Part shown: in pieces, positions 1,212 to 34,149 of the stretch | Layout of the letters: each line of letters opens with the position of its first letter | Numbering within the stretch: position 1 is the first letter of the stretch | Virus record (IMG/VR): IMGVR_UViG_3300027782_000141 | Span: 1-44,737 of that record | Origin: a virus | Reading direction: 5' to 3' (one strand) | DNA length: 44,737 bases | Translations under genes and position numbers: made by a program | The notes under the pieces: generated by a model | Told to the model about the DNA's origin: nothing | The model's input: only the letters and a program-made list of their open reading frames with translations | Databases searched by the model: none

Positions 1212-1227
1212 TATAGGAATAAATTTT

Positions 1228-6881: not shown

Positions 6882-6897
6882 GAGATTATTTAAGTCC

Positions 6898-9608: not shown

Positions 9609-9630
9609 GCTATTAGCCCCTAGTATCTTG

Positions 9631-9638
9631 TATTTATT
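9631..9638 (-). promoter_or_regulatory. Late promoter, AATAAATA variant
   Basis: The minus strand reads AATAAATA, one base off the T4 late consensus at the least conserved first position. It lies in the 34-base gap between the fibre-assembly-like gene and the fourth fibre gene, 22 bases before the ATG at 9608. Its position also supports that start: a start at 9701 would put the promoter inside the coding region. Confidence 0.62.
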
Positions 9639-9642
9639 GCTG

Positions 9643-9999
9643 TTATTGTATACGAGCTGCTGCGGCCTGTCGCTGCTGCTCAAGTTGTAGATATTCTGCA
9701 TCTGATAAACTTGTAGGTATATTCAGTGCTTTCTGTCTGATATGTCGTAAAACTTTCCAATCTGTGCTGTTTAAAAATTCACGTTCTTGTCCGTTGGCTA
9801 TATCTGTAGCTCGTTGTGCTGTGACGCTGGATGCTACCGCAGCAACAGATTTGCTAGCAAGATCAAAGTAATGTGTCTGTGCTGCTATTTGGGCAGCTTG
9901 TGCGTCTGTGATTTCTACCACTGCGACAGAACTTGGTACATTAGGTTGATAACTTAATATACTTACTACTAGATTATTTTCTATACAAACATAATGCAT
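9643..9999 (-). CDS. Probable tail-fibre assembly (chaperone-like) protein
   Basis: A 118-residue protein with a short N-terminal beta part (MHYVCIENNLVVSIL), an Ala-rich helix, and a C-terminal region FLNSTDWKVLRHIRQKAL ... SLSDAEYLQLEQQRQAA. The combination of an LxSTDW-like segment and a terminal RQAA helix is typical of small tail-fibre assembly proteins of many phages, which act during fibre folding and attachment. It lies directly after a fibre gene (2 bases from the stop), the usual place for such factors. I use the ATG at 9999 and not an in-frame TTG at 10011: GGAG lies six bases before the ATG and would be inside the coding region otherwise. Assignment is moderate, based on pattern and position. 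Confidence 0.55.
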   Translation of the reverse strand: MHYVCIENNLVVSILSYQPNVPSSVAVVEITDAQAAQIAAQTHYFDLASKSVAAVASSVTAQRATDIANGQEREFLNSTDWKVLRHIRQKALNIPTSLSDAEYLQLEQQRQAAAARIQ

Positions 10000-10001
10000 G
10001 A

Positions 10002-12284: not shown

Positions 12285-12303
12285 TTATGCCGCTCCTGAT
12301 TCA

Positions 12304-14118: not shown

Positions 14119-14131
14119 ATTATTTTACCTG

Positions 14132-16251: not shown

Positions 16252-16902
16252 TTAGACCTCAGCAAATCCTGTTAAACTCTGCACACGGATGGTGTAGTCG
16301 ATTTGCAGTAATCTGTTTAAACTTTTCTGTACTGGATGAAATATAACATGCGTCAATAACTTCCCATCAGTTGTGTCTGGCCCAAGGCTTTTCAATCCCA
16401 ATTCGTCAAACACAAATTCACCATTCATATCCACACTGTTATCAAAAGCTTCTTGATCCAAGGGTTCACCGTAATCTAACAAACAACTGATCAGAATATC
16501 GCTGTAGGTGGCACCACTGATATGCCGAATCTCCATTTTGTTTCTAACAGGATCTTGATTTTCAATGGCATTTTGATCCACTACTTTTTGATATGTCTGA
16601 TTATATAAACTGGAATTTACCCCAACTGTGTTGGGTGTGAGATAAGTGATAAGTCCTGTGGGATCTACTGTGGTTCCGCCTGTGCCAAAAATCATTTGAT
16701 ACACTGTTCCATATCCTTGATTACTTAGACTATTAACCATGGCCACACTCATATTTTCATAGTGGATGGCATTACGCTTGTCCACAAAAACTTCTTTGGT
16801 TTCGGGATCATGAATTTTTATATGTCCCTCAAAATGAAATCCGCCTGTTTCGTTGGGGCGAGATTGGGGAGTATTTGCTTGCTGATCTTGGTTATTTGGC
16901 AT
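16252..16902 (-). CDS. Virion structural protein, unknown
   Basis: A 216-residue protein that I recognise only as the type of small structural protein found next to fibre genes in marine T4-like phages. It has an unstructured Gln/Asn-rich N-terminus, then GGFHFEGHIKIHDPETKEVF, which may be a beta domain, and a middle segment (YQMIFGTGGTTVDPTGLITYL). No catalytic motif, membrane segment or signal peptide is visible. It is the first gene after a late promoter and ends 2 bases before the collar fibre gene, so it heads the fibre operon and may connect fibres to the baseplate. That role is inference from position. Confidence 0.6.
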   Translation of the reverse strand: MPNNQDQQANTPQSRPNETGGFHFEGHIKIHDPETKEVFVDKRNAIHYENMSVAMVNSLSNQGYGTVYQMIFGTGGTTVDPTGLITYLTPNTVGVNSSLYNQTYQKVVDQNAIENQDPVRNKMEIRHISGATYSDILISCLLDYGEPLDQEAFDNSVDMNGEFVFDELGLKSLGPDTTDGKLLTHVIFHPVQKSLNRLLQIDYTIRVQSLTGFAEV

Positions 16903-16928: not shown

Positions 16929-16936
16929 TATTTATT
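16929..16936 (-). promoter_or_regulatory. Late promoter AATAAATA overlapping a stop codon
   Basis: The minus strand reads AATAAATA 26 bases before the ATG of the 216-residue gene. Its internal TAA is the stop codon of the giant upstream gene (reading CCT-GAA-TAA). The late element is therefore built into the end of the preceding coding sequence. Confidence 0.62.
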
Positions 16937-19900
16937 CAGGTATAGAAGTGGTCTTTGCCACAATGAATCTAGCTATGGCTGTGTCAGCGTCTATCAAACT
17001 GGCGCCGTCTGCAGCTGTGGTTGTGCCTCTATTATACCAAGTTCTTCCTTGTCTCCTTAATACCGTAACCCGAGTACCTGCTGGCAGGGCTGCGGTAAGT
17101 CGTATTTGCGCAGTTGCACCGTCTACACTGAAATCCGCTTCTTGAGTAATATCTGCTGCAGGACTCGCGGCACCATTGGCTTCTACATAAACAGACTGTG
17201 GATCTTTTTTCAATCTGCGGCCAGCTGCAAATACTTCTATTTCATCGCAAGGGCCATAGGCCTCTGGAATAGTATCTCTGTACCAAGTGCCGCTTCTTGT
17301 TCCTTTTAAAGGAGTAAAATCTAAAGGTCCAATTAACAATGTACTGCCATCGCTGGTAAAATCAGTTCTTTGCTGAACTTCGTTATAGGGTATCACTTCA
17401 CTGTATCCTACATCAACCACCGATGTACCTTGAGCATATGTATCTGCAATAGATGTTCCTTGTGCGCCTCTGCGCAATTGACTTAGAATGTTTCCAGACT
17501 TTGCCATATATTCGATACGTTCTCCATTAATAAACACAATACCCGGTAAGTTTCTGTTGGTCACGGGTTGGGTCAATTCTGTAGCATCATTAACTTCTAT
17601 GCTGGTGTCATAGTAATTCAATGCTCTAGCTAACTTGCATTCAGCTTTTGAAAATCTGTTGTAGTGATAAACATTCAACATGTCTTTGTGTATTTCATAG
17701 GCTGACGGTAATTTGAATATACTATTACTGAAATTTACAATTTTTATGTTGTCGGTGAGCTCGGTGTCAACAGTGAGATAAACCACTGCCCTAGGCAAAC
17801 TTACATAGTAATCTTTGTCTTGTCTCAAACGAATACCATTCTTATAGACCCAAACATAACTTAGAGAAATTGGCGGTCTAGACAATTGATACTGCACTTT
17901 GCCTCCGGTGCTTTCATCTTGAATAATATCTAACGTAGGATATTCTCCAAACCAAGTGACGTTGACTGCTGGATAGGTTGAATCAGAAATAGTAGAATCA
18001 CCCGGGAATCCAAAATCAAATCCAGAATCGATAATAATGTTATTGCCTTGTACAGTATATTCTGCTCTGAGATTATTTTGAATTTTGATATTATCGCCAA
18101 TTGATAATTTTCCTGGAGCGATAGTTAGCACTTTGGCAGGTCCATCTAATGTATAATCTACAATAAATGTTGCCGGTTGATCATTTATTAGAACTAAGAG
18201 ATTCGCTGGTAATATGCTACCGCCGGGTTCGATCGGATCTATGCCTAGAGCAAATACATTATTAGTGCCGTCATAGACAGCGTATTCAGTGTCAGGCCCT
18301 TTTAATAATTGACCATTAGCTTCCACTAATACAGAGCCAATCGCTGCTCCGCGAGTTAGTTCACTGAAACCATCAAGGTCAAAATTCCTTGTGCTGCCTT
18401 CATAATAAAAAGTTTGTGTATTGACCTGTATTAAGGCAATGCCCGAACTGTCAACGTCGGCTGCTGATTCTAAACATACAATCTTAACTATATCGCCTAC
18501 CTGTGGGATGGTTCCAAACTCTACTAAAGTTTTTCCCACTGCATCAATTACATCTGTGCTGTTACGGAATTCAACATCAACTTGACTACCGTTGACACTG
18601 ACAAACACATTACTGGTACTATCGTAATTGGCATTAGTTAAAAATAATCCGGTGGCTCCATCTGCAATATAGCTTTGATAATCTAAGATACCAAGGCCGC
18701 CGATTCCTATACTGAGTATTTCTATTAGTTTATCAACCATTGGTGCTGCAACAAAATTCACAGTGTTAGTTTGAGAGTCGATGGTATAATCTGTGTCTAA
18801 GATTCTCGGTGTGTTATCTACATACACAAACACTGACTGATTTTCTAACACTGGTTGACCTATAGGAAATTGTTTGTCAATTCCGTTGGAAATTATTACA
18901 TTAGATTGTAATGGTGCTGCTCCAGATACTGTATTGTTGTATACTTTGATTGAAATACTTTCGATGACTTGGCCTGGAACATTTTCTTCAGGTGCTGCCA
19001 CCATGGTAGGATCTATAAATTTACCACCTACGATTGATATTTCTTCTGAGGTAGTGCCTGTGGCTGTGATGTAGGCACCGCTGATCGATGACAGCGAGCC
19101 TCCACTTAGATTAGTATCTAAAATATTATTATCCGTTATGGTTACGGATCCGTCGCTTTCTATAGGACGGAAAATCAATATATCACCGTCTATGGTATTT
19201 AGGTATGGTCCTATCTCTACAATTGCATTTACTCCGTCTCCGATAAATGTTGGCATTTCTGCTGTTGGATTTATTCCTGTACTGGAATCTTGTGCAGAAG
19301 AATAATTCTCATCGTCAACACGCACAGTAATACTGGTATCTTTGCGTTTGATATAAATGTTAATTTTTTGACCCAATGTTGGAACATATGGTAATGTAAT
19401 TGTTCCTGTGCTGCCATCACAGATATGATAATAATCTGAGCTGGTTTCTACCGAATCCCAATTGTCTGTGAACCAAGGTAGTGCATCCCAACCTCCAGTT
19501 ACATCAAAGGTGGTGCCTTGTATCTTGACTCCACCAAAATCAATACCAGTCATTAGTTGATTAAGTTCTTTGCCTATCATACCTTCACTAGGAGTATATG
19601 ATCGATTAATTCTATTCACTGCATCCAATAACAGGATATTTTTGTCATAGATCACACTGATTTCATCATCCTTGGGTGGAGCAACATTAAACACCAATTT
19701 TCCTCGTAGTAAAGAATAACTACCATTGGCTTGGTAATATAGATTTATCACGTATTCACTGGCTAACACTACCTGTGTTTTTTTAGTCGCTGCTGATTTT
19801 CGAGTTATTTTGATTTTACTTTTGTCATTAGTCGGTGCGTAATTCAACAAGAACACAGCACTGTTTCCAGTAGCAATAAATGTCTGCGTCTGTGAAAACG

Positions 19901-22900
19901 TATTGTAAATACCGCTGGTAGAAATTCTATCAAATTTTACCGATACATCAAATGTTCGAACTTGAGGATTTCCTATTATAGCCACAGCCTTAGATTGAGC
20001 AGAAGTCGAAGGATTTCCACCTACCAATGTCACTGCAGGAGCTGAGGTGTATCCCGATCCTTGAGTTAGTACCTGTATACTCGAAACTTTACCATTAGAA
20101 ATATATGCCTTGGCTGTGGCTCCGGTTCCGTTGCCTGTAATTAATACCTTAGGAGGAGTGGTATAGCCCGTACCCGGTTGATATACTTCTATTGAAGTCA
20201 CAGCATATGCATTATTATCTGCCCACCATTTCCACGGATATTGAGATATTTCTGCAGAAGATGTAGTAACAGGATTTGCACGGCCATCAAAGATCGAATA
20301 TGCTGGTGGCAAATCAAAATCAGCCACTGCTGAAGAGTATGATTCGGGTTGGTCATATCGACTGATATACTCTCGTACTGTGGTTCTAAATGGCTTGACT
20401 TCGTTAATATAATCTTGATAGCTTGATAAATTATCGTTTTTGTAATTTGGTGGGCTTGCTAATGGTCCAATGTTATGAGTGGCATTTAGAAAACTAGTTT
20501 TAAATACCCAATCTACATACTGCTGTTCGCTGAGTACATGTCGTACTGATGCAAAGAATAATTTATTCCATTCCACAGCATAGTCACCTATGAATATATT
20601 TTGTTTAATTGCTGCAAAAATATTTCTCAGTTCTCGAGAATTTTCAATGTCATATGTGGTAGTGTCAAAGGCCTGGGTGTTATCAAATCCTACTCCAAGT
20701 GTACCAGTATCGTATGATGACGAACTTAATTGTATAGTTCCGTTCTGTCTTCCGATCAATATATATCTATCTAAAAATGATTCGCCGATATCTGAGAGTT
20801 TTTCAAACACTGCCCAACCGCCAGCAGCGTATTCTTTGACCCGTATAACATCGCCGACATCAACTTGACCATCCACTACATCGTAAATATTATTAAATTC
20901 TTTAATTATTCGAACGTTAGAGTCGTAGCCTGGACGTGTCCAATCTACTTTACTCCAATACTTGGTGGTGTCAAACGACTGTGATTGACTGCGGAAATAT
21001 ACTTTACGTGAATCGTCCCAGGAATATATGCTCCAGAAATTATTTAAAGTAGCATCGTTGTTTACTAACACAGAAAAATATCTAACTTGAACGCTGATAG
21101 TACTATATTTTTTACCACGATTAGTTACTATCACAGCTATTATTCTACCCTGACCATCTATGTGGCACACTGCGGTGGCATTGATTCCGTCGCCAGATAT
21201 AGTAATCGGAGGACCAATATAAATTCCACTTTGCTCTTGATCAAATAATTCTTTAGGTTTGTAACCATATCCCGGATCTACAATATCTATGGTGTCTAAT
21301 TCACCATTTATGAGATTGCCTTGTAATATCGCACGTTTAGTATTAATTGTTCCTACTGTCTGCAGATCAATTTCAGTGTCTACTGCCACATCGTAGAGAT
21401 TTAAGGCAGAACTAGGAACAATGTCTACGCTGTTAAGATTGGTAAAATCTATGGTTTCTGCAAATGTTTCTTTTTGTAAAATATTATTGATATATTCTAT
21501 AACAATCTTAAGTGCTAGAATTCTATCAACAAACATAGATTGTCGAGGTCTATATGCGATTCCGTATTTTAGTTTAGCTGGCAAAAATATATCCGGAATC
21601 CTATTACCAGCGATGTCTGAACCCACAAGACTGTCAAGCCATTTGTTTTCTAATTTAGCAGAAGGCAAACTATCAGCTACACCTTCTGTAAGCAATTGAT
21701 ATTCGTTGTGTACAGGAATCTGAGATTCTAAATTTTTTCTAATTTGTAGATTTATCAAAGCAGTATCAGACTGTATAACCGATTTAAAATTATAACTTAA
21801 GAATTTGTCTGATTGTAAAAATGCCATAAATGCAATACCGGTTCCGGTGGGATTCGTAATCAAATCAGCTACTTCTGCTGCTGATCTTGTGCGATCTGGC
21901 ATATTAGACGGTGTCACAGCCTTGCTTCGAACCCAGTAATAATATCGTGTTTCTGAAACTTGTCCAGTAGTAGCACTAAAGAAAAATTTCACACTATACA
22001 CATCATCGTTGGGATACAACGGCTGACCACTGATACCTTGAGTTAACCCTTCATTGGTATCTGCTAGAGCTGCCCATTCGCTAGGCAACAGCACAGTTTC
22101 TATCCACTCATAGACATCGATGCTGGCGCCTTGAACCAGTTGATTCCAGTTTCCTATTCTATATGCAGAATCTTTCTGTTCTGCATATTGAAATTTGGCT
22201 GTACCTGTATTCCACCATAATTTTCCTACATTTTTCTCCAGCCAATTAATGGTAGGATCCACTACCACTGCTGTTGTGCCTACGGAGTAAACTGCAGGAT
22301 CATAAGGAGTTTTATATTTTATTTCTTGTTCAGCTATGTTTAGTACTTTTCCTCTCGCAGCATCAATATAATCTACGTCTTGTATTTTTACATTTTTGAC
22401 ATTATCATAGAGTTCAATTTTTTTGATCTTTCTCAGATCAATCAATGGCTGCTGATTAGTTAATGTGGTCCAGCTTGCGTCTGTGGTGTTTGCTGTGAAT
22501 AGACGTACTATACCTTGATAGGTATTAGTAACTGTATTTTTATAGTAAGGAGATCCCACTAATAGTTTTGTGCCGATACAGTCTATGCTGTGACCAAATG
22601 ATTCGTCTGCTTGCAGATCACTGTCTAATTTTTCTGTGAGGAAGAATATCTGATCTTTTTTATCGAATACATAAACTCCACCAGTAAATCCTTGTTCTAC
22701 ATAGAATCTTGTTCTGCTGTTATCAAATGTGGTGCCTTCTAACAGATCAAAGTTTATAGGAAATGGAGTTTTTGTGTTTCTAGCGCCTACAGCTATTTTT
22801 GCACTGTCTGGGCTCACTGATACAGCAAAACCAAAATATTCATTGGTGTAGATTTCATAACTCTGCAAACGCTGTTTGACACGGAATTCAGTAGCTGGTT

Positions 22901-25900
22901 GATCTAATTCTAAAACATATACCGCACCTTGATCTTGATAGTTCACATCTGCTCTAGGACAGGCAACGGCTAACGTTGTGCCGTTGGCATCCATATCCAT
23001 GCTGAAACCAAATTGGTCACCTGTGCTGATAACTAATCCGGAATCTATATCAGTAAATGACGACAACGATCCTGCATTTATCATCTGAGTTAGTTCGTAA
23101 GAATCATACGAGGTTTTCTTATAAACAAACACCTTACCGCTGGGGGTTGAAGTGCTGTCCCCTACCTGTTGCCAACTTGAGCTACCGGACGGGTCTTCAT
23201 TATAACTACGATACGTGCTATCTGGACCTAGGCCTACATCACCTAATTGGTAATACTGGTATGCCTCACTTGGTGAGCCGCGATGTCTAACTGTTTCACC
23301 TTCGACGTATTCTACATCAGCTCGCCATAGTCCTCTATAATTTGCAAAGTAAGCTCCATCGCTGTTAGGTGCGCCTATGACTAAAATGCTACCATCTTTA
23401 CTCATAGTCATGGAGAAGCCAAATTGATCTCCCTGCTTGACCAGTTCTGCTTTTTGCGTATCTGTTAACAGCCCAGTGGTGGTGAACTCTAGAGTAGAGC
23501 CATCATCTTCAACAGAAATATTTGTGGGCAAAGAACAGTGTGTGGAAATGTCACTGACTTTTAACCAGTTCTGTGAATCTAGTGTAAGTGTGCTACCATC
23601 TGATGTTGACCCGTCTAGACTCTGCCATAGATTACCACGAACCTGTTCACCAATAGGATCTTGAGATGCTTGCCATACTATTTCACCTTGCTTGTACGAA
23701 TCAAGGAGATTATAGATGCCCTTGTACAAGGGGTTTTCCATATGTGTCCATTCAGTTCCGGTGTACTTGATAAGATACACTCGACCTGTGTTATTATAAG
23801 AACCTATAGCAGATACTGCTAGATAATATTCATTTCCGTTCACACCAATGGTAATTTCTGATCCAAATTTTTCGTTATCCGTAGGCCGAGGGCTTACAAA
23901 TGCTGTGGTATTGATATATCTTCCGCTGACAAATTCGTACACAGCAACCATGCCTTGTTGATAATATCCTGTATTACGTGCTGATGTTTCAGCAGGAACA
24001 ACTGTGGTGTGTGGAACCCAATCATCAGAATTTATGGCTATCTGGGTGCTGCCATCACCTAGACCTACAAAGTTTCCATTGGCGTTTAGTGCTCTATACA
24101 GTCTGCCGCCATAAAGCACAATGTCATCTTGTTCATAAGCCACTTCGGTCTGCCAGTCGCCCATGTATCGATTGATCACACCACTGGCTGTGGGAGCTCC
24201 AATAACCAGATATTTTCCGTCTGGACTCACTGCCATTTTTTCGCCAAACGAGCCCACAGCTATATCGAAGAATCCGATAGGAGGTGCTATGATCTGTTTT
24301 AATGAAAGCCCTGTATCTGTTTCTACATAGACATTTACAAATCCCGAACCTGGTATGCTGCTGATCACATGTTTGTTGATGTTATCATAAACAACTTTAG
24401 ATCCTGCAAGCAACGGTGTCGAAGTACCAAAATCTGCTATGGTTTTTGCTGTATATAATTTATTTTTCTGAACAACTTCCCACTGATCATCACCGTTATT
24501 ATCTACAAATACTGTTGAGTTATTTTTTAACAGTGCGGCCGGATGTTGATCAACAGCTGCATACTCTGCGAATCTTGCTGTGGTTAACAATTGTATATTA
24601 ACAGTGGTGCTAGAATCTAATTCAGGATCGTTGATGTCTGCACTGACCTCAACTGTTATAGTGGTGTTGGTTACTGCGATAACTTTAAAGAATCCGCTGA
24701 GATTGACTATTTCACGGAACCCAACATAATCATCAACTATAACCGAATGTGGTCTGTTCAATGTTAGTGTAACTGTGGTATCATCTACACGCACTGCGTC
24801 AGTGACATACAACAGCGGAGATTCATTTACTCTTAAAACTTGCCACGAGTCTTGATAAAATGTTACCCAGATGTGATCGTTTTCGTTAACTGTGGTTATG
24901 TCCAACGTAGTCAATTGATCTAATCTAGCTATCACATGTTGGTATTGCCCCGAACTAACATAACAAGCAGTGAATTCAGGTTCTAGGTCTAGAGTGGTAG
25001 GCAAAATATCTACAGTATACGGAATTGAAGCAATTGTAAAATCGTTGGCTGTAAGTCTATAATATTGATCTAAGGCGTTAGGAGTTTCGCTGCTGGTAAC
25101 TAAATGCAGCTGAGGATTCAACTTGAATCTATTCTTTTCTAGTTGTATTTCAGTTTCTGAAAATTGATCAACACCTCCGACCTGACCCAACCTAAAGGCC
25201 CACTCCTCATTGAGTACCACACTATCGGATCCTGATCTACTGAGCTTATTGAAAATTTTAGTCACGCTGTTCGCGGTGCCTTTTTCTCTGATAAATCCCT
25301 GATACAACTGATATTGACTCACAGAATCTTCTGCAAGATTTTGCAGATAATCTCGTTGTTGATATCCTATCACATGTCTGGCTAGATCTCGTTGACTTTG
25401 ATCTAGTCCCTGTGAAGAAGTTTCAAAATAATCGCTGAACTGTTTAATCTTATAATCAAAATTTGACACTAACTGTTTAACTGGTTTTGAATCTAGTTTC
25501 GACCAGTTAGCATCATTAAATGTTTCTGTGCCTAGTTGATTTACAAGGCTAGTCCAATTATAAGATTTATAGGATACAATGTCTCCTAGTTTGTAATCCT
25601 TGAAAGGCTGCCATGTCTGTATATCAACATTATCAAATACAAATCCGGGACTGGTGTAGTCACCGTCCCAATCCACTGTACGGAAGGCCTGCATTTTAAT
25701 ACGACCTTGTCGATATCCAGTAGACTTGTCGTAGATGATGTCGTTGAATACCGTGCGATCATCAAACACAGTGACATGCTCTTTGATCACATAGTGTAAT
25801 CTAGCATAGTAGATTCCATCAGTAGTATTGGTAGTTTCTATAGTTAGATTTTGAAAACTTCTATTAACATTTATAAATCGTGGAGCCAGTGCTGTTCCAT

Positions 25901-28900
25901 CTCCTTTGAGAATTTGATAATCATAGAACCCATCTAGTAGATTATCAGGAGTGCCCACAGGAATCGAAATCTCTAATTTTTGTGCAGAGGGGCTTAGAGC
26001 AATAATGGCTCCGGATTCCCAATTGTGTTTGGTCCAGAACATAAATTCTTTGGCAGCACTGAGCCAATCTTGGCTAGTAGCATTTTGAGGATCATAATTA
26101 TCAAATATAATTCCCTGAGTTTTCAGATAGCTTTCATATCCTAGTAAGAGATCTACTACTTCTTGTATGCTGGTCAGCAATGTGCCATAGCTGATCTGTC
26201 TCACAGAGATGGTGTTAAATACCCGTCTACGCTGTGCTTCGATAGCACCTATCTTAGGAATATCGCTGAGTTTCTGCCATTGGCTACGATCAAAATCTCC
26301 GCTGCTACGATGGGTTTTTAACGCACGATAAAAATTACTTTGATATCGAACTAAAGTACCGTTGTTGTAATTTTTATCTTCTATCCAATCTGTGAATGCT
26401 TCGCTAACTCCGCCTACAGAGATTATTGGATCTTTACTGCTGGCCTGAGCCTGGTGATAATTGAAGTAGGGATGGATATCATCGTAGCCCGCAACTATCC
26501 ACCCGCCGGAAGTTTTTTCTAATCTTACTCCACTATATGCCACTGTGGTCACAGGACTGCTGACATTGAATATAATATCATAGTTTTCTGCAGGCACAAA
26601 TATACTTGAAGTAGTAGCCGAGGGATTTTTAGAATCTAATAGAAATTTCTGTTGTTGTTGATCTACAAATCCACTCATTCTAAAACTAAGAGCTACATCT
26701 AATTTTTCTATTTTAGTTTGTAAACTGTCTTTATCTAGTCCTTGAGATTTTGTGTAGCTGATCAAGTATTTCACTAATCCCACGGCTGTGGAATCTGCGA
26801 CATGAGGAGCAATATCAGAAATTGTTACAAAAAGACCTGTGGCGGAATTTACATATTGATCTAATTTGTTTTTTGTAATTCTTGATCTATCAAAATTATC
26901 AGGAATATACTCGAATGGTTTCATCAAGCACATGGCAGTGATTACAGCATAGGGCCATTCTGAACTAGATCTCCATGCGTATTCTACCGGACTCACATCT
27001 CCTAATACAAATGGTCCACGATTATTAATCAATGAAAAATTCTGTGCTAGATTAGAATCCAAGGGACTCAGTAGTTTTCCGTCTCCATCGACGGGAATAT
27101 GTGTGGATAGGCCTGGACGTTTATATCTGTCATGTCTACCTGCTCGAGATCCCTGGCGAATAATACCATTTTCGAGATCTTCCCAAAGAACTAGGTTATT
27201 GCTGGTATAGGGAGCAGCACCGTATTCTTCTTGCCACCAATCAGGTCGTTGGCTGAATCCCAACATTTCCCAAGGACATCTATGTGGTCGATCTGTATCA
27301 TAAAAATGTTGGTATACCCCTCTCCACCAGCCGGGAATATTCTTGGTCTTGGTAGGATCGGTCATGTTACTGTAGGTATAGGTGAATGAATTTTCACTGT
27401 CAAAATATTCATTCAAGGTATAATTAATATTGGTGTTTTGAATCCATTTAAGAAAATCTTGCACCACTATGCTGTCTAGCTGAGATTTAGAATATTCGCC
27501 TATGCCATAATATCCCGATAATATCTGGTCTATGTCAAAAATCGCTGGGTCATATTCCTCCTTGATATTATTGTAAATCCTAAACTCAAGTTCAAGTAAT
27601 AGGTCATCTCTAAAATCATTATAAGCCGAGGTAATACTACCATCGTGGCCTTGTATAACATATCGTGGCTCTTGGTATGTGTCGTCGAGAAATTTAGCTG
27701 GGGTATATTTCTTATACAACCCCATAGATGTAGGTGTAGGCGGAATATGGTTAGTAGAAGTGCTGAGATATTCTCGAATCTCAATCGTGTCACCCAATTG
27801 CAGTGTAATTAATAATCTGACAAAACTAAATGTAGAGCTAAACTCATAGTCAATACCATTTAATAACTGCGTTCCGTTCTTATACACATACACAGCTCGG
27901 CTGCTGGGTGTATTGAGATCGAATTTTTCTGATAAAGAAAATGTAGTGATTCCGGTATCTTCTACCACAACCTGCAATGCGGTATAGGCTCCTACTCCTA
28001 TCATGTCTGAGTCAGCAAAAGCATTTTGTGCTGTCTTCACAGCAGTAAGACTGTTTATTATATCGTCAACAAAATCAACCACGTTGTTATTATAATCAAT
28101 CTCTGTGGCTCTCTGTAAGAAATTATTTTTAAAATCAGTGTACTCTTTTTTAGCGTATTGAATCGCTTTGATTATATTATGAGTTTTGTCACAGAGTGTT
28201 GTTATCGCCAACGGCGTAATACCACTGTGTTTCAAAAATCTCTTGGCTGACAGTCTGTAATTTTCAATATCTCTTAGATTACTGACTCCGGGTAATTTTC
28301 CTGTAAATTCGTCATTCCATTCCACGGCGCTGGCTATATGATCAACCGCTTGTCCTAGAGTAAATGATTCAATAGGTGTGTTAAAGGGATTTTTTTCTAG
28401 TCCCACAGGCATTTCATAATAACCTTGGTCTGGTTCTAAATCTGTAATAATTTTTATCACAATAACATCGTTTTCAACAAATTGTTGACCAAACACAAAT
28501 GTACCTAATTTTCTAGTCCAAGTACCGAGATATTTTATACCATTGACATAAAAATTTATTTCTGGCTCAGAAATTAAACTTTCCCACTGCACTGTGTTAA
28601 AAGTTAATGTATCTGTGGCTCTCACTAGAACTAAATTATCTATGATAGGTTGCACATATTTGGTGTTGAGTTTTTCCCATCCGTTGGCATATCCAGCAGC
28701 ACCTAGTTTATAAAACCCTGTGGATATTTTTTTATTTGTTGGCTTGTTATCGATATTATACCGAAACGCTTCTGTATCCCAGTTCCAATTAAATTCTATG
28801 TCACCTATGTTGTCTATATTGAGATAACTTAGTTGGAACCCCAGTTCTTTGTCTATTCTACCATTGCCTGGTTTATAACTGAATATTTTTGAACCACGAA

Positions 28901-30758
28901 ACTCTGTATCTGCATAGGTCTCAGAATTTCCGAAACTGATTTCATCAGCATCATATACATCAAATAGCGGTGCTTGATTTACAGCTGTTTTAGGCTGGCT
29001 AGAGACCCAATCTGTGCCTGTGTAATGAAACATTTGACCTTTGTTTATCGTACCTCGTCTCACAGTCACACATTGTCCAAGTATTGATTCTGAATCTTCA
29101 CTGTCTCTAAGATGTATCTGTTCACTATTATTGTGAGTGATAAATTCAACTGTATAAATTTTATTATTGGCTAATTTATCGTTGTCAGCAACTACTAGAA
29201 TTCTTGCACCCTCAAATAAAAATTCTCCGTCAATGTTATAGCCTCTAGAACCTTCGATAGTTGAAAACACATCAGTGGTTGATGTATCAATGTAATCAAC
29301 AGTCTGCTTGGCTATTGATCCGTGATTGTATAATTGCAGGCCAGCTTTAAATTCGATAATAGGACGCTTGGCTCTGGCTGTTTCGTTCGCTGGAAAATCT
29401 TGGCCTCGTAGTCTGTAGGCTTTTTCTAACACAGTTCTGTGGAACCAACGATTGTATCTACTCCAGGGATTATTATCTGCACTGTCTCTGGCTATAGTTA
29501 TATAATCTTTAAACGCAGCATATTCTGTTGCATCATCAAAAGGTTGTGTATCAAATCCTTCGTTATCAAACAATACTTCAGGCACATCTGCGCTAAGAAT
29601 AGGCACCACTAGATCACCGAACCTAGTTAGAGTTATAGCTGTACCAACTCCTTCTACCAACCATGTGTCTTTGGCATATTTGGCCGGTGTTACATTTCCT
29701 GAGAATTCTACAATCATGCCGTTGCTGAATTCAATGCCGTTACCACTGTTATAAGTAGTTTTACCGATGATTTCTATATCAACATTAATAAAAGTATTTT
29801 CTTCAATGTCTGCAATAATGAATCTACCAAATGCATCCGGAGTTACCTTGCTTTGGTAATACAGTGTATCTGGAGCATCATAAGGCACCACAAAGGTCAG
29901 GATACCATTTTCGATACCATTGTTCACGATTCCTTTGTTATAATCTAATGCAGAACCTTCAGCAGCCGGTTCTATATATTGCCAATCTTCGCTGTCTAAT
30001 GTGATTGAACTAGTATCGAGGCTGGTAACATCTCGAACAGCTCTCCATAATTTTGAATCGTATACCACAAGACTGTTCTGTGCATAACTTCTGCTGGGCT
30101 GAAATAACAGGGATCCTGTGTCAAAATTAGTACGTATAGAAAACCCTTCACCAGGTGTATTCACTCTAAATTTGTAAGTCTGGCCTCGATATAGAGTCAA
30201 AGTAGGATTATTAGTATACGCATCTGGAGTGAACACAAATGAATTTTTAGTTGTACCCAATACTACCTTATAGGTACTGTTGATACCAGCACTCTGGCCT
30301 GTGACATTAATACTACGTGGACCCAACGGCTCCCAATAATATTCTCTATAGTTTATAAACTTGTCCCAGTCTATGGGAGGATTCCAGGTATAGTGGGTTT
30401 GGCTGGTTATCTTGTCATCTCTTTCTATAGAGTTTCCAAAAAATTTCAGTTGATTTTTTACATCAAGATAATCATAGAAATTTTCTATCTTGTCGTGATT
30501 TTTAAATATTACACCAGGCTCTAGTTGATAACGACTGCGCAGAGTAGCATCAGTGTCGACATATACATCTTTGCCGTTATAGGTTTTATCATATCTACGA
30601 CCAATGTAACCCACAACTTTATCTAACACCCCCGGCTGTATTAGCGGATCAACGACCGCAGATAAAAATTTATCATTGGCAGGAGTTTGAAAAATTATTG
30701 GTAGCAGTTCTACTGATCTGCGTATAGGTAGTTGACTATTAGGAAATTTATCGGCCAT
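16932..30758 (-). CDS. Giant virion structural protein (4608 residues), baseplate/fibre-associated
   Basis: One uninterrupted frame of 13.8 kb. The N-terminus (MADKFPNSQLPIRRSVELLP, then SIERDDKITSQ and NYREYYWEPLGP) is of a type I associate with very large structural proteins of marine T4-like phages. Visible parts, in order: a Trp-rich segment near residues 1140-1290; six FG-GAP-type propeller units at about 2168-2740; at least six aromatic modules with a W..Y..G..V.Y...Y.A pattern at about 218, 1454, 1714, 2199, 2343 and 2478; Gly-rich GYGYKP and GTGYTTPP repeats near 3160 and 3520-3590; and many beta-strand units toward the C-terminus. No enzyme motif is clear. The gene starts one base after gp6 ends, where T4 carries gp7, so it is probably attached to the baseplate. 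Role inferred: host-surface recognition or a large baseplate appendage. Confidence 0.85.
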   Translation of the reverse strand: MADKFPNSQLPIRRSVELLPIIFQTPANDKFLSAVVDPLIQPGVLDKVVGYIGRRYDKTYNGKDVYVDTDATLRSRYQLEPGVIFKNHDKIENFYDYLDVKNQLKFFGNSIERDDKITSQTHYTWNPPIDWDKFINYREYYWEPLGPRSINVTGQSAGINSTYKVVLGTTKNSFVFTPDAYTNNPTLTLYRGQTYKFRVNTPGEGFSIRTNFDTGSLLFQPSRSYAQNSLVVYDSKLWRAVRDVTSLDTSSITLDSEDWQYIEPAAEGSALDYNKGIVNNGIENGILTFVVPYDAPDTLYYQSKVTPDAFGRFIIADIEENTFINVDIEIIGKTTYNSGNGIEFSNGMIVEFSGNVTPAKYAKDTWLVEGVGTAITLTRFGDLVVPILSADVPEVLFDNEGFDTQPFDDATEYAAFKDYITIARDSADNNPWSRYNRWFHRTVLEKAYRLRGQDFPANETARAKRPIIEFKAGLQLYNHGSIAKQTVDYIDTSTTDVFSTIEGSRGYNIDGEFLFEGARILVVADNDKLANNKIYTVEFITHNNSEQIHLRDSEDSESILGQCVTVRRGTINKGQMFHYTGTDWVSSQPKTAVNQAPLFDVYDADEISFGNSETYADTEFRGSKIFSYKPGNGRIDKELGFQLSYLNIDNIGDIEFNWNWDTEAFRYNIDNKPTNKKISTGFYKLGAAGYANGWEKLNTKYVQPIIDNLVLVRATDTLTFNTVQWESLISEPEINFYVNGIKYLGTWTRKLGTFVFGQQFVENDVIVIKIITDLEPDQGYYEMPVGLEKNPFNTPIESFTLGQAVDHIASAVEWNDEFTGKLPGVSNLRDIENYRLSAKRFLKHSGITPLAITTLCDKTHNIIKAIQYAKKEYTDFKNNFLQRATEIDYNNNVVDFVDDIINSLTAVKTAQNAFADSDMIGVGAYTALQVVVEDTGITTFSLSEKFDLNTPSSRAVYVYKNGTQLLNGIDYEFSSTFSFVRLLITLQLGDTIEIREYLSTSTNHIPPTPTSMGLYKKYTPAKFLDDTYQEPRYVIQGHDGSITSAYNDFRDDLLLELEFRIYNNIKEEYDPAIFDIDQILSGYYGIGEYSKSQLDSIVVQDFLKWIQNTNINYTLNEYFDSENSFTYTYSNMTDPTKTKNIPGWWRGVYQHFYDTDRPHRCPWEMLGFSQRPDWWQEEYGAAPYTSNNLVLWEDLENGIIRQGSRAGRHDRYKRPGLSTHIPVDGDGKLLSPLDSNLAQNFSLINNRGPFVLGDVSPVEYAWRSSSEWPYAVITAMCLMKPFEYIPDNFDRSRITKNKLDQYVNSATGLFVTISDIAPHVADSTAVGLVKYLISYTKSQGLDKDSLQTKIEKLDVALSFRMSGFVDQQQQKFLLDSKNPSATTSSIFVPAENYDIIFNVSSPVTTVAYSGVRLEKTSGGWIVAGYDDIHPYFNYHQAQASSKDPIISVGGVSEAFTDWIEDKNYNNGTLVRYQSNFYRALKTHRSSGDFDRSQWQKLSDIPKIGAIEAQRRRVFNTISVRQISYGTLLTSIQEVVDLLLGYESYLKTQGIIFDNYDPQNATSQDWLSAAKEFMFWTKHNWESGAIIALSPSAQKLEISIPVGTPDNLLDGFYDYQILKGDGTALAPRFINVNRSFQNLTIETTNTTDGIYYARLHYVIKEHVTVFDDRTVFNDIIYDKSTGYRQGRIKMQAFRTVDWDGDYTSPGFVFDNVDIQTWQPFKDYKLGDIVSYKSYNWTSLVNQLGTETFNDANWSKLDSKPVKQLVSNFDYKIKQFSDYFETSSQGLDQSQRDLARHVIGYQQRDYLQNLAEDSVSQYQLYQGFIREKGTANSVTKIFNKLSRSGSDSVVLNEEWAFRLGQVGGVDQFSETEIQLEKNRFKLNPQLHLVTSSETPNALDQYYRLTANDFTIASIPYTVDILPTTLDLEPEFTACYVSSGQYQHVIARLDQLTTLDITTVNENDHIWVTFYQDSWQVLRVNESPLLYVTDAVRVDDTTVTLTLNRPHSVIVDDYVGFREIVNLSGFFKVIAVTNTTITVEVSADINDPELDSSTTVNIQLLTTARFAEYAAVDQHPAALLKNNSTVFVDNNGDDQWEVVQKNKLYTAKTIADFGTSTPLLAGSKVVYDNINKHVISSIPGSGFVNVYVETDTGLSLKQIIAPPIGFFDIAVGSFGEKMAVSPDGKYLVIGAPTASGVINRYMGDWQTEVAYEQDDIVLYGGRLYRALNANGNFVGLGDGSTQIAINSDDWVPHTTVVPAETSARNTGYYQQGMVAVYEFVSGRYINTTAFVSPRPTDNEKFGSEITIGVNGNEYYLAVSAIGSYNNTGRVYLIKYTGTEWTHMENPLYKGIYNLLDSYKQGEIVWQASQDPIGEQVRGNLWQSLDGSTSDGSTLTLDSQNWLKVSDISTHCSLPTNISVEDDGSTLEFTTTGLLTDTQKAELVKQGDQFGFSMTMSKDGSILVIGAPNSDGAYFANYRGLWRADVEYVEGETVRHRGSPSEAYQYYQLGDVGLGPDSTYRSYNEDPSGSSSWQQVGDSTSTPSGKVFVYKKTSYDSYELTQMINAGSLSSFTDIDSGLVISTGDQFGFSMDMDANGTTLAVACPRADVNYQDQGAVYVLELDQPATEFRVKQRLQSYEIYTNEYFGFAVSVSPDSAKIAVGARNTKTPFPINFDLLEGTTFDNSRTRFYVEQGFTGGVYVFDKKDQIFFLTEKLDSDLQADESFGHSIDCIGTKLLVGSPYYKNTVTNTYQGIVRLFTANTTDASWTTLTNQQPLIDLRKIKKIELYDNVKNVKIQDVDYIDAARGKVLNIAEQEIKYKTPYDPAVYSVGTTAVVVDPTINWLEKNVGKLWWNTGTAKFQYAEQKDSAYRIGNWNQLVQGASIDVYEWIETVLLPSEWAALADTNEGLTQGISGQPLYPNDDVYSVKFFFSATTGQVSETRYYYWVRSKAVTPSNMPDRTRSAAEVADLITNPTGTGIAFMAFLQSDKFLSYNFKSVIQSDTALINLQIRKNLESQIPVHNEYQLLTEGVADSLPSAKLENKWLDSLVGSDIAGNRIPDIFLPAKLKYGIAYRPRQSMFVDRILALKIVIEYINNILQKETFAETIDFTNLNSVDIVPSSALNLYDVAVDTEIDLQTVGTINTKRAILQGNLINGELDTIDIVDPGYGYKPKELFDQEQSGIYIGPPITISGDGINATAVCHIDGQGRIIAVIVTNRGKKYSTISVQVRYFSVLVNNDATLNNFWSIYSWDDSRKVYFRSQSQSFDTTKYWSKVDWTRPGYDSNVRIIKEFNNIYDVVDGQVDVGDVIRVKEYAAGGWAVFEKLSDIGESFLDRYILIGRQNGTIQLSSSSYDTGTLGVGFDNTQAFDTTTYDIENSRELRNIFAAIKQNIFIGDYAVEWNKLFFASVRHVLSEQQYVDWVFKTSFLNATHNIGPLASPPNYKNDNLSSYQDYINEVKPFRTTVREYISRYDQPESYSSAVADFDLPPAYSIFDGRANPVTTSSAEISQYPWKWWADNNAYAVTSIEVYQPGTGYTTPPKVLITGNGTGATAKAYISNGKVSSIQVLTQGSGYTSAPAVTLVGGNPSTSAQSKAVAIIGNPQVRTFDVSVKFDRISTSGIYNTFSQTQTFIATGNSAVFLLNYAPTNDKSKIKITRKSAATKKTQVVLASEYVINLYYQANGSYSLLRGKLVFNVAPPKDDEISVIYDKNILLLDAVNRINRSYTPSEGMIGKELNQLMTGIDFGGVKIQGTTFDVTGGWDALPWFTDNWDSVETSSDYYHICDGSTGTITLPYVPTLGQKINIYIKRKDTSITVRVDDENYSSAQDSSTGINPTAEMPTFIGDGVNAIVEIGPYLNTIDGDILIFRPIESDGSVTITDNNILDTNLSGGSLSSISGAYITATGTTSEEISIVGGKFIDPTMVAAPEENVPGQVIESISIKVYNNTVSGAAPLQSNVIISNGIDKQFPIGQPVLENQSVFVYVDNTPRILDTDYTIDSQTNTVNFVAAPMVDKLIEILSIGIGGLGILDYQSYIADGATGLFLTNANYDSTSNVFVSVNGSQVDVEFRNSTDVIDAVGKTLVEFGTIPQVGDIVKIVCLESAADVDSSGIALIQVNTQTFYYEGSTRNFDLDGFSELTRGAAIGSVLVEANGQLLKGPDTEYAVYDGTNNVFALGIDPIEPGGSILPANLLVLINDQPATFIVDYTLDGPAKVLTIAPGKLSIGDNIKIQNNLRAEYTVQGNNIIIDSGFDFGFPGDSTISDSTYPAVNVTWFGEYPTLDIIQDESTGGKVQYQLSRPPISLSYVWVYKNGIRLRQDKDYYVSLPRAVVYLTVDTELTDNIKIVNFSNSIFKLPSAYEIHKDMLNVYHYNRFSKAECKLARALNYYDTSIEVNDATELTQPVTNRNLPGIVFINGERIEYMAKSGNILSQLRRGAQGTSIADTYAQGTSVVDVGYSEVIPYNEVQQRTDFTSDGSTLLIGPLDFTPLKGTRSGTWYRDTIPEAYGPCDEIEVFAAGRRLKKDPQSVYVEANGAASPAADITQEADFSVDGATAQIRLTAALPAGTRVTVLRRQGRTWYNRGTTTAADGASLIDADTAIARFIVAKTTSIPE
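22540..24255 (-). other. FG-GAP-type beta-propeller region inside the giant protein
   Basis: Six units share the pattern FG-(6-10 residues)-G-(2-4)-LAVGAP: FGEKMAVSPDGKYLVIGAP, FGSEITIGVNGNEYYLAVSA, FGFSMTMSKDGSILVIGAP, FGFSMDMDANGTTLAVACP, FGFAVSVSPDSAKIAVGAR and FGHSIDCIGTKLLVGSP. DXDXNG/SPDG loops resemble the Ca-binding sites of integrin-alpha-type propellers. Three of the aromatic carbohydrate-binding-like modules are inserted between blades. Such propellers usually bind proteins or glycans at cell surfaces. Confidence 0.72.
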
Positions 30759-30759
30759 A

Positions 30760-33700
30760 TTAATAAGTTGTTGATACTATAGAATTGGTACTAGCACCTA
30801 TCTCGGATGCGGTAATAGCGGAAACGATTTCTACGTCATCCACTGTGGCTGCACTGATTAGTATTTCATCAGATCTACTTTGTATTTCAAAAAGACTGCC
30901 GAACGCTTGATTAGACTGTTTAGGTACAATCACAATGTTAGCAAGATCCGGAGACACAGTATTCAATATATATGTGGTCAATTCTCCCATATAAAATCTA
31001 TCACCGAAGTCCCAGTTATTGATATCAAAGAAGTCATTGATAGCAGTGATTACTCTAACTTTGAGATCGTTGTCGTTGATCGAACGATTTTGATTTTTTA
31101 CAATCTTAAACACTGCCTGCAGTTTAGCATCAGCTTTGGTGCCAAACAGTACTTTATATTTCACAGGATGATATATGATATCGTCGCTAATGCTTTTTAT
31201 CGATGTCAGTGCTGTGCCAAAGTTGGTTCTCAATGAATCGCTGGTCGGAGCTACTGGTTCTATATCAGTGCCCCCGGCAAGATATAACCTATAGCTTTCA
31301 TCATAGCTTCTTATCAATAGATATATGTCAATAATATTGCTGGTCGACGGATCTATTCTTCTGTCTACGCTGGCATTATGGATGTATTGAAATTTTAAAT
31401 TTCTTCGACCAACTGCTGCCGAATATTCATTAACTATGTCCAAGGTGTTGGTAGTGCGATTCACTCTCTTGACTACGTTTTCATCTATGTCGTAGAAATA
31501 AATCAACTGTTGATCAGGATAGGTCACCGTATCAGTGAAGTCTATACCTGCTTCTTTTTGTCTTATTAGTATCAGATCAGAAGAATTATCCAGCAAAGTT
31601 TTTATTTTAGTTCCGTAATTGTCATTAGACGATTGAAAGAACAAGAAATTCAAATCTTGGTCTGGGCCTACAATATTTTCAAATGAATCTGGATTATCTA
31701 TGACTCCGTCATCATTTGAATCTCTAAAACTTAATTTTATCTCATTAGTGCTTTCGTAGCCGTCATCAAATTTTATGGTATCACTAACTTCAAACGGCAC
31801 ATCTTGCTTCAGTTGCGTAATAAAATCTTTTGACGAATTGATTCCCAGCACCGTTACCTGATCTTTGACCACAGCGCCTACTTGATCATTGTACTGTTTT
31901 TCATTGCTGTCAAAATAAAATCTATTCTGCTGGATACTGCCGAAAATATACGACTGTTTTCTCACTCTTACAATGTAACTGTCGGGTTGTTTAACAAATG
32001 CCAAAATCCAAGAACTATCTACATTGGTATTGGTGGTGTCTCCGGCTTTGCCTAGAGTAAAATCATTAACTAGATTTAAATTACTGGTTGTAATTAGTTT
32101 CCATTGAGATTCAGTGACTTCATATCTCAGTCCAAAATTCTGATTATCAAACACCTGATTAACAATTTCAGTTTCTAGTGCATTAGGAAGGTCGCTGACA
32201 AATCTAGGAACTATGCGCTGGGCTATGGCTCCTGTAGGAACTAAATCGCCAAGTGTTATAGGACCTAGACCTTTAACATAAGTGCCGTCTCCTGTGATCT
32301 TAACAATTTTTGTCCATATATATTCTGTTTGATCAGCATCGTTGACATTTATTACAACTAGTTTTCCTTTTTTAAATCTGTATCCGGCAGGAGGAATAAA
32401 TTTCACAGCTGCATTTGATAACACATATTTTAAATTGCTGGTAGAATATGAACCAACTTTGAGCTGAGAATTATCTACCACATTTTTAAAATAACCTGTG
32501 CTGGTAGATGTAGTTATGGATTGCCACACAGTGTTAATGTCTGTAAACAGTATTTTATCAAACTTTGTGAAATAAAAATTATAAACTTCATCATCTGTGA
32601 ATACTGGTTCTACACTGCGTCTAATAAAATTAATAATATCTATTCTGCTGGTAAATTTAAATGACAGCCCGGATTCGTCTTCTTGTTTATAGATATATCC
32701 GTCATTACCGAACACATTGATGCTGCTGTATTTTCCTGTGGCATCTATAACATCAAAATTTCTGCTGATGCCACTGGATGTTCTATTCACTGCTTTAATT
32801 TTTACAATATTTTGTGATCCCAGCAATGGTGCAAGATTATAGTCTTCTGCAGTGATCATTCTATTTTGAGTATAGTACACTGCTGGAGCATTAGCACGAA
32901 TATTATCTATATCTTCGGAAGCTGCTGAATTAGCCACAGTGCTCTGCAGAGCCAGGCCTATGGTTAGTGTGTGCTCGACATTGTTTTTATTTTTATAAAG
33001 CACAGAAATATTAATGCCCCTTAACTCATTAGGGTATATGGTGTAAGAAAGTCCATTGCTGGTTCTGTAAAATACTCTGAAAGACCCTTGAGGCAGATTT
33101 CCGTAGATTCCGTCTGCAAACACAAGATCTATGTTGTCATTTTCTTTGGTGTTGATAGCATAGATGTTGCGTATGTCTTGTGTAACACTGTTGTAGGCAA
33201 TGTTGTTGCCTACCAAAGATGATACTTTGGTCCATTCTTCAAGCTGTGCGCCTTGAGAGTTTAAGGAGAACAACCACACATCATCATTGTTAATATTGCC
33301 TGCATCCACAGCGATTTTTTCATTGGTAGTAGGAACTTCCACAGTGAAATCTGCTAGTTCTAGTGTGCCTTGTTTGAACTGCACAAAGAATCCTGTGTTA
33401 GCACTGCCTGGTCCAGATCCGTCGTTTCTATAAACAAATCCCATTTGGTTGCCGGGCACAGGCGGCTCTTCATAGATATTTTCGCTGTTTTTAAATGCTG
33501 TGCTGACTATTTCAAAACTCACGCTTCTGCTGGCTACTGTCTTGGTAAATGAAAACAGAGGTACATCTGTACTGAATGTTCGGAATCTATACTGTTCTGT
33601 AGGAATGCCTTGAATAATAGCAGATCCTTGACTGCGACCAAATTCTGTGTTGTCTGCCATAGCAGAATTTAACACAGTTAAAAACTGTTCTAGCCAGTTA

Positions 33701-34149
33701 GTGTTGGTAGGATCGTTCCAGGTTATTAACTGTTGTGCTAGATTTTTTCCATTACTGTCTATAATAGAATCAGTGGTGGTGATAGTTGTGAACTTCAATA
33801 GGCCGCTGGCTGCTACCGTACGTTTAGCATTATAACTAAGCATGCGAGCTATACGCAGTACACTTTCTTTGGTCTCGGCTAGTTCAATAAAATTTTCACG
33901 ACTGGCAAGATCTATACGAAACGCTAGGCTCTGACCTAGAAATGCTACTGCATCTATCAAGGCCATGTATTCTGAGGATTCAATATAATCATTGAAATCT
34001 TCTGGATAATTTTCACGTAGATAGGTAATGATAACCCTGCGCAGATTTTCAAAGTCGTAGCTGCGGAAATCAGCGTTTTTGAATGTCTGATAAATCCTGG
34101 TCCAATCTTGATTTAGAATCAGGTTGTTTTGTCTGCTGGTTGTGGTCAT
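30760..34149 (-). CDS. gp6: Baseplate wedge protein, gp6-like, enlarged
   Basis: A 1129-residue homologue of T4 gp6, which forms the continuous ring linking the six baseplate wedges. The N-terminal gp6 signature is present at about residues 57-110: SSEYMALIDAVAFLGQSLAF, then ENFIELAETKESVLRIARML. The C-terminus also fits (FDINNWDFGDRFYMGELTTY near 1039-1060, then NIVIVPKQSN). T4 gp6 has about 660 residues, so some 450 extra residues are inserted, mainly in the middle and probably as exposed domains. It follows gp25 by 29 bases and ends one base before the giant gene. gp6, gp25 and gp53 together build the wedge core, and all three are in this operon. Confidence 0.92.
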   Translation of the reverse strand: MTTTSRQNNLILNQDWTRIYQTFKNADFRSYDFENLRRVIITYLRENYPEDFNDYIESSEYMALIDAVAFLGQSLAFRIDLASRENFIELAETKESVLRIARMLSYNAKRTVAASGLLKFTTITTTDSIIDSNGKNLAQQLITWNDPTNTNWLEQFLTVLNSAMADNTEFGRSQGSAIIQGIPTEQYRFRTFSTDVPLFSFTKTVASRSVSFEIVSTAFKNSENIYEEPPVPGNQMGFVYRNDGSGPGSANTGFFVQFKQGTLELADFTVEVPTTNEKIAVDAGNINNDDVWLFSLNSQGAQLEEWTKVSSLVGNNIAYNSVTQDIRNIYAINTKENDNIDLVFADGIYGNLPQGSFRVFYRTSNGLSYTIYPNELRGINISVLYKNKNNVEHTLTIGLALQSTVANSAASEDIDNIRANAPAVYYTQNRMITAEDYNLAPLLGSQNIVKIKAVNRTSSGISRNFDVIDATGKYSSINVFGNDGYIYKQEDESGLSFKFTSRIDIINFIRRSVEPVFTDDEVYNFYFTKFDKILFTDINTVWQSITTSTSTGYFKNVVDNSQLKVGSYSTSNLKYVLSNAAVKFIPPAGYRFKKGKLVVINVNDADQTEYIWTKIVKITGDGTYVKGLGPITLGDLVPTGAIAQRIVPRFVSDLPNALETEIVNQVFDNQNFGLRYEVTESQWKLITTSNLNLVNDFTLGKAGDTTNTNVDSSWILAFVKQPDSYIVRVRKQSYIFGSIQQNRFYFDSNEKQYNDQVGAVVKDQVTVLGINSSKDFITQLKQDVPFEVSDTIKFDDGYESTNEIKLSFRDSNDDGVIDNPDSFENIVGPDQDLNFLFFQSSNDNYGTKIKTLLDNSSDLILIRQKEAGIDFTDTVTYPDQQLIYFYDIDENVVKRVNRTTNTLDIVNEYSAAVGRRNLKFQYIHNASVDRRIDPSTSNIIDIYLLIRSYDESYRLYLAGGTDIEPVAPTSDSLRTNFGTALTSIKSISDDIIYHPVKYKVLFGTKADAKLQAVFKIVKNQNRSINDNDLKVRVITAINDFFDINNWDFGDRFYMGELTTYILNTVSPDLANIVIVPKQSNQAFGSLFEIQSRSDEILISAATVDDVEIVSAITASEIGASTNSIVSTTY

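What the first reader, a model, noticed from the sequence alone, without database searches (positions are those of the whole stretch)
16932..30758. A single 13.8-kb gene for a 4608-residue virion protein
This is far larger than any T4 baseplate or fibre protein and takes nearly a third of the window. It starts one base after gp6, at the place of gp7 in T4. An intact frame of this length implies strong selection. It mixes a conserved N-terminus, a Trp-rich region, a propeller, glycan-binding-like modules and Gly-rich repeats, which suggests one polypeptide serving as a long multi-domain appendage.
Basis: partly seen in the sequence, partly recalled or inferred. Interest (0 to 1): 0.75.

Follow-up and report, generated by a model that had tools for sequence, protein, structure and literature searches.

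The report
Giant modular jumbo-phage baseplate protein
The 13.8-kb gene is real and encodes one 4,608-residue protein, but it is an average-sized member of a known, poorly understood family of giant virion proteins of jumbo phages, probably an outer baseplate part that carries interchangeable sugar-binding-type modules.

Summary
The frame is real and intact: minus strand, 30758-16932, 4608 aa, one base after gp6. It matches PHROG 10938, 'virion structural protein'. Orthologues lie in RaK2, GAP32, phAPEC6/121Q, PA5oct, Atu_ph07, SCTP-2 and XacN1. An IMG/VR scan confirmed 545 relatives; 102 distinct complete copies are 2608-6436 aa long, so 4608 is typical. The gene directly follows gp6 in 167 of 169 loci with room upstream. 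dN/dS is 0.04-0.21 over the whole length. Orthologues were found by mass spectrometry in phAPEC6 and CBB virions. Anatomy: a length-conserved core (about 290-1960, 2785-3130, 3240-3500) and two variable bays (1961-2784, 3501-end); here with six CBM5/12-like modules and FG-GAP repeats. Similarity to T4 gp7 itself is not detectable. A P2 gpI/Tri2 profile picks residues 1761-1926 as best of 56 windows (E 8e-4, weak), and a 595-kb phage has a clear gpI-type 617-aa protein in the same slot. Best reading: a hugely expanded peripheral wedge protein (BW3/gp7 position). Membership is inconclusive.

The parts
16932..30758 (-). Giant gene, 4608 aa, PHROG 10938 family
30189..30758 (-). Conserved N-terminal block, residues 1-190 (LPxxFQT...GYIGRR)
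   Evidence: recognised in 86 phage records
27879..29891 (-). Core, residues 290-960
24879..27878 (-). Core, residues 961-1960, length CV 0.09 across the family; AF2 pLDDT 84, pTM 0.67
27159..27341 (-). Trp-rich, best conserved block, residues 1140-1200 (PWEMLGF)
25119..25478 (-). gpI/Tri2-like stretch, residues 1761-1880, with the KGT motif at 1826-1828
   Evidence: best of 56 windows, E 8e-4, prob 24%; weak
29973..30122 (-). CBM5/12-like module a, residues 213-262
   Evidence: leave-one-out E 6e-8
26268..26396 (-). CBM5/12-like module b, residues 1455-1497
   Evidence: E 5e-6
25503..25637 (-). CBM5/12-like module c, residues 1708-1752
   Evidence: E 1e-4
24018..24167 (-). CBM5/12-like module d, residues 2198-2247
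   Evidence: E 1.5e-8
23559..23741 (-). CBM5/12-like module e, residues 2340-2400 (weaker)
   Evidence: E 0.002
23166..23351 (-). CBM5/12-like module f, residues 2470-2531 (weakest)
   Evidence: E 0.02
22407..24878 (-). Variable bay 1, residues 1961-2784, with FG-GAP repeats
   Evidence: PF14312 E 1e-19; 110-1845 aa in the family, 45% of length variance
21369..22406 (-). Core, residues 2785-3130, length CV 0.08
20259..21041 (-). Core, residues 3240-3500
16935..20258 (-). Variable C-terminal bay, residues 3501-4608; weak T7 fibre N-terminal-type match about 3958-4015
   Evidence: below Pfam cut-off
30760..34149 (-). gp6-type baseplate wedge gene, directly upstream
   Evidence: adjacency in 167/169 loci
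16252..16902 (-). 216-aa conserved downstream gene, phrog_11259
   Evidence: within 2 kb downstream in 143/171 family loci

Best explanation
It is the giant peripheral baseplate-wedge protein of a RaK2/Atu_ph07-like jumbo phage, made as one polypeptide and built into the virion. A conserved core of roughly 2,300 residues is proposed to dock on the gp6 dimer in the place of T4 gp7 / P2 gpI / Tri2 (BW3). Two length-variable bays plus small inserts carry lineage-specific modules (here FG-GAP repeats and CBM5/12-like modules) that project outward, to bind surface glycans or to hold other tail proteins. Shown: intact gene, family, slot, selection, core/bay anatomy; for orthologues, presence in virions. 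Inferred: location in the wedge, BW3 homology, and what the modules bind.
For: PHROG 10938 match. Syntenic orthologues of 3313-4449 aa after gp6, and gp6 adjacency in 167/169 loci. MS: phAPEC6 gp245, 381.9 kDa, 17 peptides, 7.6% coverage, next to gp244 baseplate wedge (PMC7247149); CBB_236, 21 peptides, 7.72%, next to CBB_237 baseplate wedge (PMC5259590; orthology by position); PA5oct record note ESI-MS/MS. dN/dS 0.04-0.21 in all segments. Core lengths near constant while bays vary 110-1845 aa and up to 1881 aa. gpI/Tri2 profile: best of 56 windows is 1761-1926, E 8e-4, aligned on KGT. The same test gives E 0.13 at the right place of T4 gp7, and the accepted gp6 family finds T4 gp6 at only about 0.001. 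The 595-kb phage LR756511 has a 617-aa gpI-type protein in the same slot (prob 95.5%, E 1.4e-8). BW3 carries receptor-binding proteins in other phages (PMC10811340).
Against: No profile similarity to T4 gp7. PF09684 does not hit the window or the orthologous records, though it misses T4 gp7 too. Fold searches gave no confident baseplate match: best 7b5h_AE prob 0.96, 9f4a_LS 0.95, 8fqc_Q1 0.66, all E 0.24-0.30, chains not identified; none for 2780-3545. pLDDT around the gpI-like stretch is only about 50-75. The gpI signal covers about 30 columns and the windows overlap. RaK2, GAP32, Atu_ph07, SCTP-2 and XacN1 copies lack detectable CBM modules, so glycan binding by CBMs cannot be the family's general role.
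Confidence: 0.55

Rival explanations
1. It is an outer baseplate or whisker/fibre-network protein that merely took the gp7 position; a different protein is the true third wedge subunit.
For: No gp7 profile similarity; fibre-like modules and variable bays; hair-like whiskers on CBB and phAPEC6 tails whose proteins are not assigned.
Against: Near-invariant coupling to gp6; gpI-like KGT stretch in the core; gpI-type protein in the same slot of another huge phage.
Confidence: 0.25
2. It is a polyprotein cut into separate virion proteins after translation.
For: Very large, with sharply alternating conserved and variable segments; MS coverage in orthologues is only about 8% and peptide positions are not given.
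Against: No conserved frame break or split gene among 102 copies; no protease gene identified in the window; I did not search for cleavage motifs.
Confidence: 0.12
3. The CBM5/12 and FG-GAP modules are structural spacers or docking sites for other tail proteins and do not bind host glycans (compatible with the wedge placement).
For: Three of the six CBM-like modules sit inside the core rather than in a bay; several family members lack CBM modules.
Against: Foldseek matches to chitin-binding domains at prob 1.0 over about 45 residues (E 0.06-0.3); CBM5/12 modules bind polysaccharide in known proteins (general knowledge).
Confidence: 0.4
4. The frame is an assembly fusion of several genes.
For: Unusual length only.
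Against: Full-length copies at 65-86% identity on independent contigs and in complete isolate genomes.
Confidence: 0.01

Closest known systems
PHROG 10938 giant virion proteins (RaK2 ORF070, GAP32_230, phAPEC6 gp245, PA5oct gp355, Atu_ph07 gp180)
   Same: Same family by profile (score about 1045 bits), same place after gp6, same core blocks, giant size
   Different: Only 25-31% overall identity; the window has a longer bay 1 with FG-GAP repeats and six CBM-like modules that RaK2 and XacN1 lack
T4 gp7 / P2 gpI / pyocin Tri2 PA0619 / Milano BW3
   Same: Gene position after gp6; weak gpI-like KGT stretch; the proposed role as peripheral wedge subunit that carries receptor-binding parts
   Different: Over four times longer than T4 gp7 and 26 times P2 gpI; no detectable sequence similarity to T4 gp7
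617-aa protein of the 595-kb phage LR756511.1 (P0007)
   Same: Follows a gp6-like gene; has a clear gpI-type domain
   Different: Compact; similarity to the giant seen only at the KGT stretch (E 0.0075)

Membership tests
PHROG 10938 giant virion protein | Profile match over the core | tested here: met
   E 0
PHROG 10938 giant virion protein | Gene directly after gp6 | tested here: met
PHROG 10938 giant virion protein | Present in the virion | not testable with these tools
   Only orthologues have MS data
BW3 (T4 gp7 / P2 gpI / Tri2) | Position next to the gp6-type gene | tested here: met
BW3 (T4 gp7 / P2 gpI / Tri2) | Similarity to T4 gp7 | tested here: not met
   prob below 1%; but gpI and gp7, which are structural homologues, also fail to find each other clearly
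BW3 (T4 gp7 / P2 gpI / Tri2) | gpI/Tri2 domain with KGT motif | tested here: inconclusive
   E 8e-4, prob 24%, best of 56 windows
BW3 (T4 gp7 / P2 gpI / Tri2) | Core-bundle helices and trifurcation fold with gp6 | tested here: inconclusive
   AF2 of 961-1960 and Foldseek: weak baseplate matches only
BW3 (T4 gp7 / P2 gpI / Tri2) | (gp6)2-BW3 stoichiometry | not testable with these tools
   Needs a complex structure
CBM family 5/12 modules | Sequence profile and chitin-binding-domain fold | tested here: met
   sugar binding itself not tested
FG-GAP (integrin-type) propeller | FG-GAP repeats over the Pfam cut-off | tested here: met
   E 1e-19; blade count and propeller closure not modelled

The most novel reading that the evidence does not exclude
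In RaK2/Atu_ph07-like jumbo phages the small peripheral wedge subunit (about 180 aa in P2, 1032 aa in T4) has grown into a single polypeptide of 2,600-6,400 residues that combines the wedge scaffold with built-in, swappable adhesin modules and takes over jobs done by several separate baseplate or fibre proteins in T4.
Probability: 0.35. Interest if true: 0.65.

Novelty: new member of a known kind. Interest (0 to 1): 0.42.

Why it matters
The family is in the virion, occurs in hundreds of environmental jumbo-phage contigs, is very large, and has no assigned role in the papers I read. A testable place (third subunit of the gp6 wedge) and a core-plus-bay layout turn 'virion structural protein' into a concrete question, with isolates (phAPEC6, RaK2, PA5oct) at hand. 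If right, exchange of bay modules would be a route by which these phages change surface recognition.

Tried and rejected
T4 gp7 homology by HH profile comparison: nothing. phmmer of the giant against PDB chains: only integrin alpha-E at E 0.5. Pfam and PHROG scans of the gpI-like stretch: no Tail_P2_I match. PF09684 over whole jumbo records: none, and T4 missed as well, so uninformative. Foldseek of 2780-3545 against the PDB: nothing; of 961-1960 against BFVD: the top matches with names are family-type proteins annotated as uncharacterised, structural or 'YHYH domain'. My recollection that cyanophages carry the N-terminal block was not supported: no cyanophage among the listed matches. A P2 gpI scan of IMG/VR returned only near-identical copies. 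Fusion or artefact rejected by intact relatives. Breaks in L021, L022 and L025 lie at different places, two simple frameshifts and one short duplication, so no programmed split. The whisker idea could not be tested.

Full report
Observation. The ORF runs from ATG at 30758 to 16932, 4608 aa without a stop. Chance alone would give such a frame with probability about 10^-124. It starts one base after a gp6-type wedge gene. The order 421-aa structural gene, gp53-like, 803-aa, gp5-like, gp25-like, gp6-like, giant resembles the T4 baseplate order.

Family. PHROG 10938 'virion structural protein' matches over the core. A tblastn search of isolate phages found 84 records, those listed nearly all from phages with genomes above 280 kb; XacN1 and RAS14 were added with the N-terminal block. 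Orthologues: PA5oct 3857 aa, Atu_ph07 4449, SCTP-2 3807 (there the gp6 match lies elsewhere in the genome), RaK2 3326, GAP32 3341, XacN1 3313. Among all loci fetched, 102 distinct complete ORFs span 2608-6436 aa, so 4608 is ordinary here. Of 169 loci with room upstream, 167 have gp6 directly before the giant, mostly within 20 bases.

Virion. phAPEC6 gp245 (381.88 kDa, 17 unique peptides, 7.6%) next to gp244 'baseplate wedge' (PMC7247149), and CBB_236 (21 peptides, 7.72%) next to CBB_237 'baseplate wedge' (PMC5259590), are the positional orthologues. The PA5oct record notes ESI-MS/MS. For the window's own phage no proteomics exists.

Selection and integrity. Against seven relatives at 65-86% identity (two pairs of them near-identical), dN/dS is 0.04-0.21 in every segment where dS could be computed (dS is above 1 in most segments, so the ratios are approximate). 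Three of the 102 'complete' ORFs that I examined end early. The causes differ (two frameshifts, one short duplication) and lie at different places, so there is no sign of a programmed or conserved split.

Anatomy. Residues 1-190, 290-1960, 2785-3130 and 3240-3500 are occupied in nearly all members. Lengths of 961-1960 and 2785-3130 vary little (CV 0.09 and 0.08). The bay 1961-2784 varies from 110 to 1845 aa and the C-terminal part up to 1881 aa; together they account for about 79% of the length variance. In the window, bay 1 holds FG-GAP repeats (E 1e-19) and three CBM5/12-like modules; three more lie at 213-262, 1455-1497 and 1708-1752. In leave-one-out tests four modules are found at about E 1e-4 or better, the other two at 0.002 and 0.02. 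73 of 105 family members have at least one such module, but RaK2, GAP32, Atu_ph07, SCTP-2 and XacN1 have none detected. Pfam finds CBM_5_12 in 6 and FG-GAP_2 in 3 of 10 diverse members.

Structure models. AF2 of 961-1960 (131 sequences): pLDDT 84.1, pTM 0.67. AF2 of 2780-3545 (88 sequences): pLDDT 83.7, pTM 0.53. Foldseek against the PDB for the first gives chitin-binding domains at prob 1.0 over about 45 residues (E 0.06 upward) and three contractile-system baseplate chains at weak E-values. The second gives nothing.

Is it gp7? A direct profile comparison with T4 gp7 fails. A gpI/Tri2 profile of 59 sequences (collected) plus the 617-aa LR756511 segment was slid over 56 overlapping windows of the giant. 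The best is 1761-1926 (E 8e-4, prob 24%), aligned on giant IREKGTANSVTKIF...NEEWAF; the next independent window scores 0.02. The same profile finds T4 gp7 only at E 0.13, at its own KG motif. The accepted gp6 family finds T4 gp6 at about 0.001. So the signal is as strong as can be expected at this distance, but weak in itself. In LR756511.1 the gene after the gp6-like gene encodes a 617-aa protein with a clear gpI domain, which shows what fills this slot in another huge phage. In other phages this protein (BW3: T4 gp7, A511 gp104, PA0619, P2 gpI) is where receptor-binding proteins attach (PMC10811340). XacN1, for which no tail fibres were seen and no fibre homologues found (PMC5852040), still has a 3313-aa copy.

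Conclusion. A known giant family, a typical member. The most likely role is an expanded peripheral wedge subunit with interchangeable surface modules (0.55). Virion membership is close to certain from orthologues; wedge placement is inferred; what the modules bind is open.

Noticed in passing
window 7806-16249 (minus): Four neighbouring tail-fibre/collar-type genes (7806-9701, 10002-12284, 12304-14118, 14132-16249) share a similar N-terminal block (GKNYxGYGE...ENFxxLLENFA...GQIWF), apparently tandem paralogues with different C-termini.
   Followed up: no
window 5883-7806 (minus): Two adjacent ORFs (332 and 302 aa) look like paralogues of each other.
   Followed up: no
window 3-5473 (minus): A radical-SAM-like gene and several glycosyltransferase-like genes follow the tail genes (read by eye); Atu_ph07 has annotated radical SAM genes downstream of its giant too, which suggests modification of virion proteins or glycans.
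   Followed up: no
L303, L144, L168, L120, L139: Family members of 6190-6436 aa, larger than the window protein; in the two examined (L303, L144) the extra length is mostly in bay 1, in residues 290-960, or at the C-terminus.
   Followed up: partly
L393:17929-21353: In the 595-kb phage LR756511.1 a gp6-like gene is followed by a 617-aa gpI-type protein, a possible compact counterpart of the giant.
   Followed up: partly
L021, L022, L025: Frameshift-like breaks or a short duplication inside the giant gene in three contigs, each at a different place; sequencing or assembly error, or mutation.
   Followed up: partly
window 44167-44601 (plus): ORF that reads like a GIY-YIG-type endonuclease next to the gp47/gp46-like genes.
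   Followed up: no
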